From assembly GCA_027009095.1 (NCBI GenBank), contig JALVDG010000216.1, positions 1 to 10,730 on the forward strand: a stretch of DNA of 10,730 nt. Reading direction: 5' to 3'. Positions within the stretch are counted from its first letter, which is position 1, and every line of letters begins with the position of its first letter. The DNA is from Thiotrichaceae bacterium (GTDB lineage Bacteria > Pseudomonadota > Gammaproteobacteria > Thiotrichales > Thiotrichaceae). The notes beneath the pieces are model-generated. The model saw only the letters and a list, made by a program, of their open reading frames with translations. It did not search any database and was not told the origin of the DNA. Positions 2,986 through 9,167 of this stretch are shown piece after piece. The position numbers were made by a program, and so were the translations under genes.

Positions 2986-3687
2986 TCATGTAATACAGGC
3001 TTTTTTCTTTAGACCTTGAGGATCAACAATTAAAATAAAGCCTTTTGATTCTTCAATAAATCCTAAGCGTCGCCAATCAGATAAAAAACGACTTACTGTC
3101 TCAATAGTCAAGCCAAGTAAAGCACCTATTTCGCTACGAGACAGCTCTAATTTTATCCAATCTTTCTCGTTTACGCCTTCGCACCACTTGAGCAAGAAAG
3201 ATGCTAGTTTTTCGGGAGCTTTTTTGGCTCCTAATTCAAGCATCATATCCTCAGCATCACGAATATTTTTTAACCAACGCTCCATCATGGCTGAATTAAT
3301 TTCAGCATTATTGATACGCAATTTGGCTAAATCCTTTAAAGGTAACCTGCAAACTTCGCTTTGACTTATCGTAATAGCGTTATGATTGTAGGCTTCTTCA
3401 ACAAAACCATCGAACCCAAATAAATCACCTTTTTTAAGAATTTTAACAATTTGTGTTCGACCGTCTGACAAGCTTTTTGTTAATTTAATTAAACCTTTAC
3501 GAAGAGTATAAGCATACTCAGAAGGCTCTCCTTGTTCGTAAATCGTATCACCCGATTCACAACTTATTATGGATGTGTGAAAATTTCTTATATCCGTTTT
3601 TAGCATCTCCTCAGATAAACCTGCAAAAATGCTACGATAACGAATGGGACAGGTCAGGCAATGACCTTTACCTATAATACTTGGCAT
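2986..3687 (-). CDS. FNR/CRP-family transcription regulator with reduced cysteine set
   Basis: This 233-residue DNA-binding regulator has an N-terminal cysteine motif C10-LT-C13-PIR, a cyclic-nucleotide-binding-type beta-barrel (about 30-120), a dimerisation helix (about 125-160) and a winged helix (about 165-230). The recognition helix carries E196-TV-S199-R200, the spacing of E209/S212/R213 in E. coli FNR, so a target close to TTGAT-N4-ATCAA is expected. Cys113 in SEVCRLP corresponds to FNR Cys122. FNR needs four cysteines for its [4Fe-4S] cluster; here only C10, C13 and C113 align well, and Phe21 occupies the approximate place of the third N-terminal cysteine. Cys43 and Cys169 are other candidates. 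It may sense oxygen or redox with altered chemistry, or may not bind a cluster. A TATAAT sequence lies 20 bases upstream of the ATG. The upstream LysM gene is on the same strand, 161 bases away, so separate transcription is likely. Confidence 0.9.
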   Translation of the reverse strand: MPSIIGKGHCLTCPIRYRSIFAGLSEEMLKTDIRNFHTSIISCESGDTIYEQGEPSEYAYTLRKGLIKLTKSLSDGRTQIVKILKKGDLFGFDGFVEEAYNHNAITISQSEVCRLPLKDLAKLRINNAEINSAMMERWLKNIRDAEDMMLELGAKKAPEKLASFLLKWCEGVNEKDWIKLELSRSEIGALLGLTIETVSRFLSDWRRLGFIEESKGFILIVDPQGLKKKACIT

Positions 3688-3848: not shown

Positions 3849-4592
3849 TTACGGTATTTTTAACACTTGCCCAACACGAATAACATTAGGATTATCTATC
3901 GTATCTTTATTTGCTTCATATAAAGCCAAATAATTTTCACCACTTCCATAAACACGCTGTGCTATTTTAAATAACGATTCGCCTTCTAAAACGGTAACAG
4001 TGCTTGCAGATTCAAATTCTTTAGTCCTAGTTGTTGATACTACTGCTTTTTTCTGTGAAGAACCACTAGTCGCGTTTGGCAATTCATTTTTTAAAGACTC
4101 AATATAGACATCTTTTTTACTCTTACCAACAATACTTTTGAGTGCCTTATTTGCAGAATTAATCGTTCCCTTTGATATTTTTTCGCCCGCTTCACTATTT
4201 ATATCAATCATAGCAGCTGACACAGCGTTACGGATATCATTTAACTTATTTCCTTTCAATAAAGCCGAGGAAACTACATTTTCAAGTTTATTGTGAAACT
4301 CTTTATCCTTTTTTATATCCTTATTTTCTGCATTTTTAGTCGTTTTAACTAGAATACCTTTAATTTGTGCTGCAATTTTATCTTCTAAAGCAGAATAATC
4401 AGTTATTGCTTTGGGTTTAATGGAAGGCTCCACTGTAGGCTCTTCAGGAACCACATTTTCGTCCATACTTGTGTCTTTAGCTTCCTCACTCAAGGCATCT
4501 AATATCGATATATTATTGTCTTCTGCGAATACTGTCGAACTACTTAAAAGCAAAAATATGCTTAGTACAACTATATTGCTAATAGTTTTCAT
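3849..4592 (-). CDS. Secreted LysM-domain protein
   Basis: The 247-residue protein begins with a clear signal peptide (hydrophobic 5-20, likely cleavage after V21-F-A23), so it is exported to the periplasm or envelope. Residues 24-62 are acidic and Pro/Glu-rich, 63-170 are predicted helical with many Lys and Ala, 170-195 form a Ser/Thr/Lys linker, and 198-247 form one C-terminal LysM domain (GESLFKIAQRVYGSG then YEANKDTI, NPNVIRVGQVLKIP). LysM domains bind N-acetylglucosamine-containing glycans such as peptidoglycan. No catalytic domain is visible, so it is probably a peptidoglycan-anchored structural or adaptor protein. The start has an excellent ribosome-binding site (AAGGAGGTC) 4 bases from the ATG. 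It starts 33 bases after the rhodanese stop and is probably co-transcribed with it. Confidence 0.88.
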   Translation of the reverse strand: MKTISNIVVLSIFLLLSSSTVFAEDNNISILDALSEEAKDTSMDENVVPEEPTVEPSIKPKAITDYSALEDKIAAQIKGILVKTTKNAENKDIKKDKEFHNKLENVVSSALLKGNKLNDIRNAVSAAMIDINSEAGEKISKGTINSANKALKSIVGKSKKDVYIESLKNELPNATSGSSQKKAVVSTTRTKEFESASTVTVLEGESLFKIAQRVYGSGENYLALYEANKDTIDNPNVIRVGQVLKIP

Positions 4593-5804: not shown

Positions 5805-6083
5805 TTATTTTTGTAATTTCTCAATTTCTGATTGCACCGCTTTTTGAATATCTGCATCAATTGAATCTTGAACAGCGTTATTTAAAGCATTTCTCAAACT
5901 ATCTGATGCCTTATTTTTTTTATCATTTTGTTTTTCTTTATCAACCACCTGAGCACCATTTGTTGCTTTTTTTGCAACGGAGGCAGTCGTCGCTTCAGGT
6001 GCTTTATCTTGTGGGTAAAAAAAATATATAATCATAGCTAGTAGCACAACTCCTACAACTATGAACCCTATTTTTTTATTCAT
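5805..6083 (-). CDS. Small membrane-anchored protein of unknown function
   Basis: The 92-residue protein has one N-terminal membrane segment (4-23), preceded by NKK. A low-complexity Ala/Thr/Lys linker follows (25-58), then a charged, probably amphipathic helix (about 60-92, DSLRNALNNAVQDSIDADIQ onward). No family is recognised. Topology may be a periplasmic tail by signal-anchor insertion; the lysines near the start favour that. It follows the sensor gene on the same strand with a 119-base gap that contains repeat copy C. Upstream of the ATG at 6083 the ribosome-binding region is a run of eight G preceded by five A, unusual in this AT-rich sequence. A small accessory of the sensor/GTPase cluster is possible from position only. 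Confidence 0.75.
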   Translation of the reverse strand: MNKKIGFIVVGVVLLAMIIYFFYPQDKAPEATTASVAKKATNGAQVVDKEKQNDKKNKASDSLRNALNNAVQDSIDADIQKAVQSEIEKLQK

Positions 6084-6202: not shown

Positions 6203-7384
6203 CTAGCTTGCTCGCTTCATAAGAATTTGCATCGATTTTCTTAGTAGCTCAACTGCTTTGGAGAGAGCACCTATTTCATCGTTACTTTCAATAACAATAG
6301 GTGTTTCTAAATCCCCCATGCTAAGTTTCTCAACACTTTCGGTCAAGGTGACTAAAGGTTTTGATATTGAGCGAGATAAAAACAAAGCTAAAGCTACGGT
6401 CAAAAAAAGTGCCAGCAAAGCCACACCAAGAAAAACATACAGAAAATTATTAACTGCTTTAAAAATAACACTCTTTGGAGAAATATCAACAATCGTACCT
6501 AATAAAAAGCTATCATCAATAACTTTCACTGGCATAAATGTAATAATATCATCACTTGTTTCTATATTTTTCACGCTTGTTGCACGAGATATTTTGTCTT
6601 TTATTTCTGGTCGCTCTTTAAAAAGATTGGCTTCTTTTTTTAATTCTCGAACACTGCTCCACATGCTTTTTTCATCCGGACTGTAGAAGTAATACCCATC
6701 ATTATCAATAAAAACTATACTCTCCCCCCGAACCGCTTGAGAGGCAATTAAATCTATGATTTTCTGTGCTTTAAGATTTAAAACAACAATGCCTCGTAAT
6801 TTATTTTTTTTATCAAATACAGGGGTTGCAAAACGAATAGTTGGATTGTAGGGCTCTTCTATTTTGCCTTTTTCACGATTTAAATCTAATTTACTAATGA
6901 ATAATTTATCTTTTTTAAGTTTCAATGTTTCATTAACATAAAACCTATTCTTCTTAGATTTTAGCTTAGTTTCTGTCACTATTTTTGTTTTATCCCCAGA
7001 GTGATTTACTCGAACCACTTCTTTACCTGAAATATCAATAAACCGAACTTGGTCATATATTTTTTTCTGTGCTGAAAACTTTGCAAAACTTGAACGTAAA
7101 TTAGTTAATAACAACCTTTCAGAAGTACTACTATCGGATTCTAGTGCTGACAAATACAAATGCAATGCTGGAAAATCCCTTAAATAAAAGACATCGCTAC
7201 TGACATTCCCCAGATAACCGTTAATCTGCTCACGAATTAATAGTATTTTATTTTTCTGTGCTGAAATACTACTTTCTTTTAATGACTCAATGGTTGAAAA
7301 AAAGGTATAACCTCCAATTAACAACGTTGGTAACAAGGTAACTAGCAATAGCACTAATAAAAGTTTATTTTTTATACTGTTCAT
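6203..7384 (-). CDS. Double-Cache/HAMP membrane sensor without an output domain
   Basis: This 393-residue inner-membrane receptor has TM1 (about 8-29), a large periplasmic region (30-308) of double-Cache type, TM2 (about 312-336) and one HAMP domain (about 337-390, with SISKPLVTLTESVEKLSMGDL and SNDEIGALSKAVELLRKSM). The Cache assignment rests on size, a long N-terminal helix, the segment YDQVRFIDISGKEVVRVN (110-127), RFATPVFDKKNKLRGIVVLN (184-203) and SIVFIDNDGYYFYSP (222-236). Such modules normally continue into a histidine kinase, cyclase or methyl-accepting domain. Here the protein stops three residues after HAMP, with nothing in any frame downstream resembling a lost output. It must therefore act on a separate partner; the GTPase/roadblock genes just upstream are the obvious candidates by position. 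The start at 7384 has a weak ribosome-binding site, and an overlapping short frame ends just inside the gene. The ligand is unknown. Confidence 0.9.
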   Translation of the reverse strand: MNSIKNKLLLVLLLVTLLPTLLIGGYTFFSTIESLKESSISAQKNKILLIREQINGYLGNVSSDVFYLRDFPALHLYLSALESDSSTSERLLLTNLRSSFAKFSAQKKIYDQVRFIDISGKEVVRVNHSGDKTKIVTETKLKSKKNRFYVNETLKLKKDKLFISKLDLNREKGKIEEPYNPTIRFATPVFDKKNKLRGIVVLNLKAQKIIDLIASQAVRGESIVFIDNDGYYFYSPDEKSMWSSVRELKKEANLFKERPEIKDKISRATSVKNIETSDDIITFMPVKVIDDSFLLGTIVDISPKSVIFKAVNNFLYVFLGVALLALFLTVALALFLSRSISKPLVTLTESVEKLSMGDLETPIVIESNDEIGALSKAVELLRKSMQILMKRAS

Positions 7385-7520
7385 ACATAATCTCTGTATT
7401 TATTTTGTTCTCAATAAATTGTGAAAGCTTTGACAAGGGAATAACCATTGCCTGCAACCCATGCCTTGCCTTGAACACTTTGGTTTGCTCTGTATCCGTC
7501 AATATAACGTGGTTGGAGTA
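7365..7520 (-). other. Short open frame between roadblock gene and sensor (possible gene or remnant)
   Basis: On the minus strand one frame is open from after a TAG at 7523 to a TAA at 7367-7365, overlapping the first 20 bases of the sensor gene. Its translation (LTDTEQTKVFKARHGLQAMV, then IPLSKLSQFIENKINTEI) looks protein-like. Codons end in G more often than in the neighbouring genes. The only ATG near the front (7448) would give 27 residues, while TTG at 7502 would give 45. No family is recognised. It could be a small coupled gene, the tail of a decayed gene, or chance. Confidence 0.2.
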
Positions 7521-7528
7521 CTAGTACA

Positions 7529-8170
7529 TCAACTATCTAGAAAGTCATCTATCACAATTTTTGCCTGCTGATAAAAATCAGCCTGCTCTTTATTAGGATC
7601 TAACTCTTGCTTAATAATTTCTACTAAATGAGGAAGGTTTTCATGGCTTTGAATATATGTTTTTTTCCATTTTTTAACATCGTCTTCAAATACAAAAATA
7701 GCCGCAGGACCTAAGTATTTTTTCAGTATAGTTGATAACTGATCAAGCACAGGCTGAAGCTCTTCATCTGTTGGCGGAACTTGCTCGGCAGCTACCTGCT
7801 GAGGAGCTAAACGTGCTATTTTCTCCTGTTGCTCCTCTTTAATTTTACGTTGAATTTTAGCCGATGCTGACTTAATTCCCATATGAACCAAAGGAAAATT
7901 GATTTTTTTATCTGTTAGTAAAATCGCGATACATGTTTCATGCATCAAATATCCCACTAAAAAACGGTCTCCCATTGAAAAATAAATTTCATTGTGTGAC
8001 TTATCAATCGCCTTTAATGCTGAAAAAATCTGATCGATTAAATCATGAGACAAATTCATCGAAGCAGACATTTCATCAGGAAATGTAGATACTGGTTCTT
8101 TTCCTTCCTGATAAATACACGCATAATGTACCCCACGAAGCAATGTAATACCTTTTAGAATACTCTCCAT
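7529..8170 (-). CDS. Roadblock/LC7-like protein with a C-terminal extension
   Basis: This is a 213-residue protein. A TTG at 8173 directly precedes ATG at 8170; I use the ATG. Residues about 1-107 fit a roadblock/longin-type fold: N-terminal helix (ESILKGITLLRGV), strand HYACIY, a long helix (40-56), strands EIYFSMGDRFLVGYLMHETC and IAILLTDK, and a last helix. A charged helix (107-122) and an Ala/Pro linker lead to a second domain (136-213) with ILKKYLGPAAIFVFEDDVKKW. A similar LGPxA helix-strand pattern occurs at the ends of some bacterial signalling proteins, but I cannot name the family with certainty. Roadblock proteins bind and regulate Ras-like GTPases (MglB for MglA). The gene starts 4 bases after the GTPase stop, implying translational coupling and a shared complex. 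No cysteine-rich or membrane segment is present, so a cytoplasmic location is expected. Confidence 0.78.
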   Translation of the reverse strand: MESILKGITLLRGVHYACIYQEGKEPVSTFPDEMSASMNLSHDLIDQIFSALKAIDKSHNEIYFSMGDRFLVGYLMHETCIAILLTDKKINFPLVHMGIKSASAKIQRKIKEEQQEKIARLAPQQVAAEQVPPTDEELQPVLDQLSTILKKYLGPAAIFVFEDDVKKWKKTYIQSHENLPHLVEIIKQELDPNKEQADFYQQAKIVIDDFLDS

Positions 8171-8174
8171 CAAA

Positions 8175-9167
8175 CTAAACCCACTGTAACATATCCTCTA
8201 CTTTCTGACTTAGTGCTGGTACAGAGACCGCTTTATCAGAGCTAACACCTAATGAACGCTCTTCTTCAACAAAGACCGTCAAATTGTCATCTTGAGGACC
8301 TCGTAGCATTATTCTATGTATTCTACCCATGTTACTTGCATCTTCGAGCATTGGCGTAACACCCGATAAAAAAGCGATGAATTCATTAATATCGTCATCA
8401 TTAATAGTCGAATGTAATAATTCACCGATAGAATTGGTTAATGTCACCCCATTAACACCCTCTAATGTCGCAACTTGCTCTAAGGAACTTTCATCAAGCT
8501 TCAAAACATCATCTGTGGATGGTGTTAAAGTCTGCTCAACTGACACCTCTTCAGCCACTAATTTTTTAGCTGAAGGAGTAGCTGATGCATGCTCTGCAAT
8601 AGTGCCAGACTCATTTACAATTACTGGTATCTGCTCACTTTCAGAGGAAGCAACAATACTTCCAACTAAAGTGCGTACCAACTGCTCTACATCCTCTTTT
8701 TTTCGAGCATCAATAAACATGACTTCGGCATCTAAACTTAGTTCTTTTATCCACTGCTGATAAGCTGATATGGGTATCTCATCACTTTCATCTGAACGAG
8801 TTACACCAAGAATAAGCGTTTGAGATGCAATGAGGTTCGAAAAATTTTCTACATAATACTTTAAATCTCTAAATGGATAGTTTCGTGTATTATCAAGTAA
8901 TATGATAATGCCATGCGCACCTTCAGAAAGAATTTCCCACATAAAGTTAAAACGCTGCTGCCCAGGCGTTCCATAAACATAAGCGGTATGCTCATTCACC
9001 TGCACTACACCAAAATCCATTGCTACTGTTGTATTTGATTTTCGCCTGCTAGTCACTTCATCGCTAACCTGTACATCTGTCATGAAGGCATCGTCGTTAG
9101 TCAACGAATTAATTGCAGTTGTTTTACCTGAGCCTACTGGACCCGTTATAATTATCTTATATTTCAT
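8175..9167 (-). CDS. Ras/MglA-like small GTPase fused to a roadblock-like domain
   Basis: This 330-residue cytoplasmic protein has two parts. Residues 1-172 form a small GTPase: P-loop GPVGSGKTT (9-17), switch I with TTVAMDFG (46-53), G3 YGTPGQQRF (65-73) with Gln70 in the Ras Gln61 position, G4 as GVTRSD (121-126) instead of NKxD, and DARK (153-156) near G5. The Asp that begins G3 in Ras is Gly66, as in related bacterial MglA-type proteins. A linker rich in Ser/Thr/Glu/Val (173-222) leads to residues about 225-330, which fit a roadblock domain: LEQVATLEGVNGVTLTNSIG, then ELLHST, a helix (258-276) and strands RIHRIMLRG and NLTVFVEEE. Stand-alone gammaproteobacterial members of this GTPase family are about 180 residues, so the C-terminal domain is an addition. 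It is the first gene of the probable operon, followed after 4 bases by the roadblock protein. The start ATG at 9167 has a weak ribosome-binding site (AAAGG). The role as a polarity or signal switch is inferred from MglA. Confidence 0.87.
   Translation of the reverse strand: MKYKIIITGPVGSGKTTAINSLTNDDAFMTDVQVSDEVTSRRKSNTTVAMDFGVVQVNEHTAYVYGTPGQQRFNFMWEILSEGAHGIIILLDNTRNYPFRDLKYYVENFSNLIASQTLILGVTRSDESDEIPISAYQQWIKELSLDAEVMFIDARKKEDVEQLVRTLVGSIVASSESEQIPVIVNESGTIAEHASATPSAKKLVAEEVSVEQTLTPSTDDVLKLDESSLEQVATLEGVNGVTLTNSIGELLHSTINDDDINEFIAFLSGVTPMLEDASNMGRIHRIMLRGPQDDNLTVFVEEERSLGVSSDKAVSVPALSQKVEDMLQWV

What the first reader, a model, noticed from the sequence alone, without database searches (positions are those of the whole stretch)
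6203..9167. Candidate signalling cassette: GTPase-roadblock fusion, roadblock protein and output-less sensor
Three consecutive same-strand genes encode a Ras/MglA-like GTPase with its own roadblock-like domain, a second roadblock-like protein starting 4 bases later, and a double-Cache/HAMP receptor lacking any output domain. MglA-MglB and Streptomyces conservons show that roadblock proteins regulate such GTPases and that sensors can sit with them. A HAMP-only sensor paired with a GTPase-roadblock fusion would be an unusual non-phosphorelay route from the periplasm to a GTPase switch. Domain content is read from sequence; the pathway is inferred.
Basis: partly seen in the sequence, partly recalled or inferred. 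Interest (0 to 1): 0.72.

Follow-up and report, generated by a model that had tools for sequence, protein, structure and literature searches.

The report
Membrane sensor split from its switch
A bacterial membrane sensor that has no signalling part of its own sits next to a small adaptor protein and a Ras-like on/off switch, and relatives suggest that such cut-off sensors hand their signal to a separate protein carrying one recognisable helical domain.

Summary
The three genes encode an MglA-type GTPase fused to a roadblock (RB) domain, an RB protein, and a dCache-HAMP receptor that stops 9 residues after HAMP. In the family, 17 of 22 fusion loci that have the RB protein carry an adjacent sensor. 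Sister cassettes keep RB, RB protein and sensor but lack the GTPase (sensor in 9 of 12, two at contig ends). The missing piece is the RB protein's C-terminus: a four-helix domain, DUF8082, with an LGPAA motif. In nine other families of the class, output-less Tll0287-HAMP receptors lie beside, or one gene from, Ser/Thr kinases or a class III cyclase carrying a related domain: 9 of 9, against 0 of 21 Tll0287 loci without a terminal HAMP. I conclude that DUF8082 proteins are the detached outputs of HAMP-only receptors; here the output is an RB-GTPase module. The archaeal pair Af1503 (HAMP-only) and Af1502 (STAC) is a parallel; homology of DUF8082 to STAC is not shown. Physical coupling, GTPase regulation, ligand and downstream effect are inferred.

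The parts
8643..9167 (-). MglA-type GTPase domain (residues 1-175) of the fusion protein
   Evidence: motifs fit MglA Groups 2-5 (GTPGQ) and the Group 2/3 DAR motif as described in PMC4316618
8178..8522 (-). C-terminal roadblock domain of the fusion (about residues 216-330)
   Evidence: 27-47% identical to stand-alone RB proteins of sister cassettes
7823..8170 (-). roadblock domain of the adaptor protein (residues 1-116)
7532..7756 (-). DUF8082-type four-helix domain of the adaptor (residues 139-213) with LGPAA motif; proposed receptor-coupling domain
   Evidence: precomputed PF26309 on P0121; helices 139-153, 157-171, 176-187, 195-212; related to C-terminal domains of receptor-linked kinases/cyclases
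6518..7282 (-). periplasmic dCache-type sensor domain (residues 35-289)
   Evidence: PDB relatives 2p7j/3lid at E 5e-19
6233..6382 (-). HAMP domain (residues 335-384), the receptor's only recognised cytoplasmic domain
   Evidence: the HAMP hits in the PDB are led by 2y21 (titled HAMP), 2y20 and an entry titled Hamp domain of AF1503
6206..6232 (-). 9-residue tail after HAMP; an R-x-S pattern just upstream is invariant in 20 aligned receptors
5805..6083 (-). 92-aa protein with one hydrophobic stretch (read by eye); matched only in close relatives and partly in L045 and L060
4626..5276 (-). rhodanese-like protein with a signal-peptide-like N-terminus (read by eye), in 17 of 22 fusion loci
3849..4592 (-). 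LysM protein with a signal-peptide-like N-terminus (read by eye), in 18 of 22 fusion loci and beside two GTPase-less cassettes
   Evidence: L097, L136

Best explanation
The cassette is a split receptor: a periplasmic dCache domain senses a signal, the HAMP domain switches, and, since the receptor has no output of its own, the signal passes to the C-terminal DUF8082 four-helix domain of the neighbouring roadblock protein. That protein's RB domain pairs with the RB domain of the GTPase-RB fusion, so the receptor controls the nucleotide state or membrane recruitment of an MglA-type GTPase. DUF8082 acts as an interchangeable plug: the same kind of output-less HAMP receptor is served by DUF8082-tailed Ser/Thr kinases or class III cyclases in other gammaproteobacteria. 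Shown: gene order, domain content, recurrent linkage, co-occurrence, relatedness of the DUF8082 domains. Inferred: physical HAMP-DUF8082 contact, RB-RB pairing, effect on GTP hydrolysis, ligand, and downstream output (perhaps envelope or surface behaviour, given the LysM and rhodanese neighbours).
For: Cassette with sensor in five genera of the family (17 of 22 fusion loci). GTPase-less cassettes keep RB + RB-DUF8082 + sensor (9 of 12, two more at contig ends); both forms coexist in G097 (L136, L137). RB, adaptor and sensor trees group mostly by cassette type (2-3 label changes against 7.5-10 in shuffles). HAMP-tail matches of at least 62 bits in 0 of 38 genomes without the adaptor and 24 of 25 with it, though 15 of those 24 supplied rows to the profile. 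DUF8082 protein beside, or one gene from, output-less Tll0287-HAMP receptors in 9 of 9 loci and in 0 of 21 other Tll0287 loci. Kinase-end against adaptor-end profile: probability 95.9, score 44.0; best of 100 column shuffles 16.3. Reverse search: all 13 strong DUF8082 genes, in 11 of 143 class genomes, lie beside or one gene from a HAMP-terminated receptor. Two weak hits on one contig of G014 turned out to be such a set.
Against: No binding or activity was measured and no complex predicted. Sensor absent from 5 of 22 fusion loci, and G031 has the adaptor with DUF8082 but no such sensor found in the genome. G015 has at least four further short HAMP-terminated receptors (C28, C36, C4, C24) with no DUF8082 neighbour found. 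Co-occurrence rests partly on physical linkage, on related genomes and on a profile made from the cassettes; the 62-bit cut was set after seeing the gap (62.1 to 52.4 bits). The segments in the profile comparison were cut around a GP motif, so part of their likeness is by selection. Four weak DUF8082 hits (E 1e-5 to 1e-7) have no receptor flagged by motif. Two GTPase-RB fusions (L058, L059) have neither adaptor nor sensor nearby. In G025 the sensor frame runs on into the next gene, and in the fused G097 cassette the Cache protein has no recognised HAMP.
Confidence: 0.6

Rival explanations
1. The receptor signals directly to the GTPase-RB fusion, and the DUF8082 end of the adaptor is a scaffold unrelated to the HAMP.
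For: The genes are adjacent and roadblock proteins are known GTPase regulators (PMC4316618).
Against: Cassettes without any GTPase keep the sensor; the element shared with kinase and cyclase loci is DUF8082, not RB or GTPase.
Confidence: 0.12
2. Output-less receptors act by mixing with other HAMP receptors (kinases or chemoreceptors) encoded elsewhere; the RB genes are merely co-transcribed.
For: The genomes hold many other HAMP matches in frames of about 420-860 aa.
Against: The receptors follow the adaptor across genomes (0 of 38 genomes without it have a strong match) and DUF8082 proteins in nine other families; the receptor tails are alike.
Confidence: 0.12
3. The fusion is a self-regulated GTPase working on its own; the adaptor-sensor pair is an independent system that uses RB only for dimerisation, as in the GTPase-less cassettes.
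For: GTPase-less cassettes; two GTPase-RB fusions without adaptor or sensor (L058, L059). The residue before the RB glycine is not Asp in the window or in 12 of the 13 related RB rows (11 from cassettes, 2 lone) of the alignment, unlike the Asp-Gly pair described for MglB of Groups 2-5 (PMC4316618).
Against: RB, adaptor and sensor trees give largely matching groups; the fusion gene ends 4 bases before the adaptor.
Confidence: 0.16

Closest known systems
Af1503-Af1502 (archaeal HAMP-only receptor and STAC-domain protein, PDB 5A1Q)
   Same: Receptor ends in HAMP; neighbouring gene encodes a helical domain of about 70 residues with an LGPx(x)A motif and four helices (PMC4834066 section 8); here LGPAA and four helices.
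   Different: Here the helical domain is fused to an RB domain, and in relatives to a kinase or cyclase, so an output is visible. Profile comparison with CbrA-type STAC domains was inconclusive and a PDB profile search did not return 5A1Q.
Streptomyces conservons / actinobacterial G protein systems (CvnA-D)
   Same: Membrane sensor, roadblock protein and MglA-family GTPase in one operon (PMC13343842 abstract; PMC4316618).
   Different: No histidine kinase-like protein; GTPase fused to RB; RB protein with DUF8082; a CvnC counterpart was not looked for.
MglA/MglB (Group 3, beta/gamma-proteobacteria)
   Same: GTPase motifs GTPGQ and DAR; coupled to roadblock proteins. An unfused GTPase + RB operon exists elsewhere in this genome (L001/L098).
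   Different: 330-aa fusion rather than a small GTPase, with a HAMP-only receptor in the same cassette.
Asgard archaeal GTPase-roadblock fusions
   Same: GTPase fused to an RB domain in one chain (PMC10933270 passages).
   Different: Those are Rag/Arf-like by that paper; this is MglA-type and tied to a receptor.
sCache_heme (Tll0287/DUF3365) receptors with HAMP
   Same: Same sensor family as the second output-less receptor of sister cassettes and the kinase/cyclase-linked ones; CXXCH present. One HAMP-bearing member binds NO (PMC12889525 abstract and passages).
   Different: 'Roadblock' and 'GTPase' occur 0 times in that paper's main text; the passages seen name no trans partner.

Membership tests
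MglA family GTPase (Groups 2-5) | P-loop, TT in G2, GTPGQ in G3 | tested here: met
   invariant in the alignment of 64; criteria from PMC4316618
MglA family GTPase (Groups 2-5) | coupled to an MglB/roadblock | tested here: met
   fused RB and adjacent RB protein
MglA Group 3 system | small GTPase of at most 240 aa | tested here: not met
   330 aa fusion
MglA Group 3 system | neighbour with receiver-like N-terminus and winged-helix C-terminus | tested here: inconclusive
   none of the cassette neighbours shows such Pfam domains, but the published protein matches no Pfam model either and neighbour folds were not tested
Conservon | CvnA histidine kinase-like sensor | tested here: not met
   receptor ends after HAMP, no HATPase domain
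Conservon | CvnB roadblock and CvnD GTPase | tested here: met
Conservon | CvnC protein | not tested
   no CvnC profile was used
Roadblock/LC7 | roadblock fold of the adaptor N-terminus | tested here: met
Roadblock/LC7 | profile match of the GTPase C-terminus | tested here: met
   46 of 64 members at E<=0.1, the window protein itself not among them; PDB hits of the family profile; no structure model obtained
DUF8082 (PF26309) | profile match | tested here: met
   precomputed PF26309.1 on P0121; the model itself is not in the local library
STAC domain | LGPx(x)A motif between the first two of four helices, beside a HAMP-only receptor | tested here: met
STAC domain | sequence/profile or fold similarity to known STAC domains | tested here: inconclusive
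   profile score 15.5 against a best of 18.0 in 60 shuffles; kinase-end profile 19.3 but out of register; PDB profile search without 5A1Q; the C-terminal part was hardly tested by the fold search

The most novel reading that the evidence does not exclude
Bacteria have a general class of split receptors: sensor-TM-HAMP proteins without output whose signal is delivered in trans to cytoplasmic proteins tagged with one HAMP-reading domain (DUF8082, possibly the bacterial counterpart of archaeal STAC), and outputs of quite different chemistry (Ser/Thr kinase, cyclase, roadblock-GTPase) are swapped by swapping what carries the tag. This would answer how HAMP-only receptors such as Af1503 signal and would be a phosphorelay-free route from periplasm to a Ras-like switch.
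Probability: 0.5. Interest if true: 0.9.

Novelty: new variant of a known kind. Interest (0 to 1): 0.78.

Why it matters
Af1503, the source of the first HAMP structure (PMC3570549 passages), is described as lacking a recognisable effector (PMC4834066). A recurrent neighbour domain that sits on a recognisable effector gives HAMP-only receptors a direct, testable partner. It also adds a kinase-free way to put a Ras-like GTPase under a periplasmic sensor, and links heme-Cache receptors (NO-binding in one tested case, PMC12889525) to Ser/Thr kinases and cyclases.

Tried and rejected
Pfam on the adaptor and 61 relatives showed no roadblock among the 25 of 35 families listed; the structure model settled it. 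A profile-profile comparison of adaptor RB and fusion RB gave a weak match (probability 60.4, E 8.4e-5). DUF8082 = STAC by sequence: not supported beyond the motif; the best PDB hits of the DUF8082 profile were designed TPR proteins (E 0.003). Origin of the fusion versus stand-alone RB: the trees need 2-3 label changes and long branches make the root unsure, so I do not claim gain or loss. Promoter and terminator scan: 29 and 3 found against 26.8 and 3.6 in shuffles, so operon structure is unproven. Literature: DUF8082 in 0 papers; roadblock + GTPase + Acinetobacter + MglB 0; the listings for Tll0287, STAC/HAMP, DUF3365/HAMP/kinase and roadblock/HAMP/Leucothrix (titles and abstract starts, capped lists) named nothing describing this pairing; the library is open-access only. 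In five family genomes the DUF8082 search found one match each, the adaptor, and none in G012.

Dropped or unequal rows: of 22 fusion loci with adaptor, 20 were in the trees (G025, whose adaptor reads in two frames, and G045 left out). The Tll0287 test used the 30 loci returned out of the more than 100 places listed. One of the nine positive loci (L238) was missed by the first profile and seen by eye; a second profile that does not contain it found it later (G130:C79, E 1.9e-16). Of the 36 adaptor rows, G025's two rows are one gene and the weak G014:C38 row was counted apart. L095 lies 559 bases from its contig end, so its lack of a sensor is not secure.
Full report

Conservation. The window lies in a 2.39-Mb draft genome whose named kin are Leucothrix, Cocleimonas and other Thiotrichaceae MAGs. 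Adaptor relatives were found in 25 of 63 genomes of the order. Twenty-two loci combine fusion and adaptor, in five genera; 17 have a sensor gene next. In two of the 17 the sensor is irregular: in G025 its frame runs on into the next gene, and in G097 the Cache protein has no recognised HAMP but a Tll0287-HAMP gene follows. In G001, G003, G004, G005 and G031 it is missing; a rhodanese gene follows the adaptor directly there. Over the 22 loci a rhodanese gene was seen in 17 and a LysM gene in 18. Four of the five sensor-less genomes carry a second cassette: stand-alone RB (104-117 aa), adaptor, output-less dCache-HAMP and a Tll0287-HAMP receptor of about 290 aa, without GTPase (L081, L083, L084, L085); in G031 no sensor was found at all. 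Over all 12 stand-alone RB + adaptor loci, nine have a sensor, two (L088, L095) lie at contig ends, and one (L096) has none; in L095 and L096 the adaptor lacks the DUF8082 end. G097 has both forms. Trees of RB, adaptor and sensor group mostly by cassette type: in G001, G003, G004, G005 and G006 the fused and stand-alone copies fall apart in the RB and adaptor trees; exceptions are the fused G097 copy, which groups with stand-alone ones, and long-branched G017 copies.

Co-occurrence. A profile of the receptor HAMP plus tail gives matches of at least 62 bits in 24 of the 25 genomes with an adaptor (not G031) and in 0 of the 38 without; the next match is 52.4 bits. Fisher p is 1.6e-16, but the profile was built from cassettes of 15 of those 24 genomes, the genes are mostly physically linked, related genomes are not independent and the cut was placed after seeing the gap. 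The 0 of 38 is the informative side.

The key comparison. A family search for Tll0287 sensors in 143 genomes of the class returned 30 loci, of more than 100 places. Nine, in nine other families, encode receptors of 290-311 aa that end 134-142 residues after CXXCH, in a HAMP; 16 frames end 44-49 residues after CXXCH; five run on for 364 residues or more. A profile of the adaptor's C-terminal domain, built from 101 adaptor-like database proteins, searched against 1135 reading frames of these 30 loci, hit proteins in eight of the nine HAMP-terminated loci (sequence E 3e-5 to 0.06) and in none of the other 21; the ninth, L238, shows the domain by eye and was hit by a later profile that does not contain it. 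Four of the neighbours were confirmed as protein kinases and two (L233 and L271) matched the cyclase family, L271 just under Pfam's cut-off; the other kinases were recognised by motif or reading, and in L232 one of the two DUF8082 proteins is unassigned. Comparing the kinase/cyclase-end profile with the adaptor-end profile gives probability 95.9, score 44.0 over 54 columns; 100 column shuffles reach at most 16.3; segments on both sides were cut around a GP motif, which helps the score. In reverse, a mixed DUF8082 profile in 143 class genomes found 27 places in 14 genomes: 23 strong ones (at least 43 bits) are 13 genes in 11 genomes, all beside or one gene from a HAMP-terminated receptor, including a cyclase and a kinase-like gene whose contigs start inside the receptor; the four weak places showed no receptor by motif. 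The two searches overlap and are not independent. As a forward test, two weak separate hits on contig C38 of G014 proved to be a 476-aa frame with two DUF8082 domains and, one gene away, a CXXCH-HAMP receptor, in a genome that also has the RB-GTPase cassette. These receptors end with a similar helix end, e.g. FNRMRRSLEKAMSMLDE and, in the window, VELLRKSMQILMKRAS.

Interpretation. The simplest reading is that DUF8082 is the cytoplasmic partner domain of HAMP-only receptors and that its carriers are their detached outputs. In the window the carrier is a roadblock protein adjoining a GTPase-roadblock fusion, so the output should be a Ras-like switch, with the two RB domains likely forming a heterodimeric platform (inference; that RB dimers bind small GTPases is stated in PMC10933270 passages). 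A close parallel in print is Af1503, a HAMP-only archaeal receptor translationally coupled to Af1502, a four-helix STAC protein with an LGPx(x)A motif (PMC4834066, section 8 read). Sequence profiles do not show DUF8082 to be homologous to STAC.

Limits. Nothing here measures binding, nucleotide turnover, ligand or phenotype. At least four short HAMP-terminated receptors in G015 have no DUF8082 neighbour found, G031 has the adaptor without a sensor, and two GTPase-RB fusions stand without adaptor or sensor (L058, L059). The fusion and the isolated DUF8082 domain could not be folded because the queue stayed full. Papers: PMC4316618 (Results parts 1-2 and the section on signal-transduction links read, other passages), PMC4834066 (section 8 and passages), PMC12889525 and PMC11112851 (abstract and passages), PMC10933270, PMC3570549 and PMC13022988 (passages), PMC13343842 (abstract and outline).

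On rereading the calls I mended: five genera, not four; L095 moved from 'no sensor' to 'contig end'; the wording on Pfam and PDB lists; the source of the HAMP profile; and the receiver/winged-helix test, now inconclusive.

Noticed in passing
L032 (QOAQ01000028.1): Contig titled Aquificaceae MAG has the window's gene order, with metG 94% identical at protein level; the organism label looks wrong (a contig of the same length lies in a genome of the window's genus).
   Followed up: partly
L001 / L098 (G000:C24): Second, unfused GTPase (179-189 aa) followed by a 211-aa protein and a 120-aa Robl_LC7 protein, with 240- and 458-aa unknown proteins upstream; the set is also seen in L138 (G020), and partly in L139 (G032).
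   Followed up: partly
L090, L091, L092, L093 (G015): Four additional short HAMP-terminated receptors (273-294 aa, no CXXCH) without a DUF8082 neighbour found.
   Followed up: partly
L232, L236, L238, L239, L289: A protein with an F-W-P-[ST]-W stretch lies beside the kinase-type receptors, secreted-looking in most.
   Followed up: no
L081-L085: A divergent ORF of 675-777 aa (cut in L084) lies upstream of the GTPase-less cassettes; the one scanned has no Pfam match.
   Followed up: no
L058 (G014:C62), L059 (G019:C221): GTPase-RB fusions 41-44% identical to the window's, in other surroundings, without adaptor or sensor.
   Followed up: partly
L060 (G025:C312): The adaptor gene reads in two frames (79 + 142 aa) and the sensor frame runs on into the next gene: broken genes or assembly errors.
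   Followed up: no
window 2986-3687: FNR/CRP-type regulator follows the LysM gene in the window and in G002, G006 and G008 only, among the loci compared.
   Followed up: no
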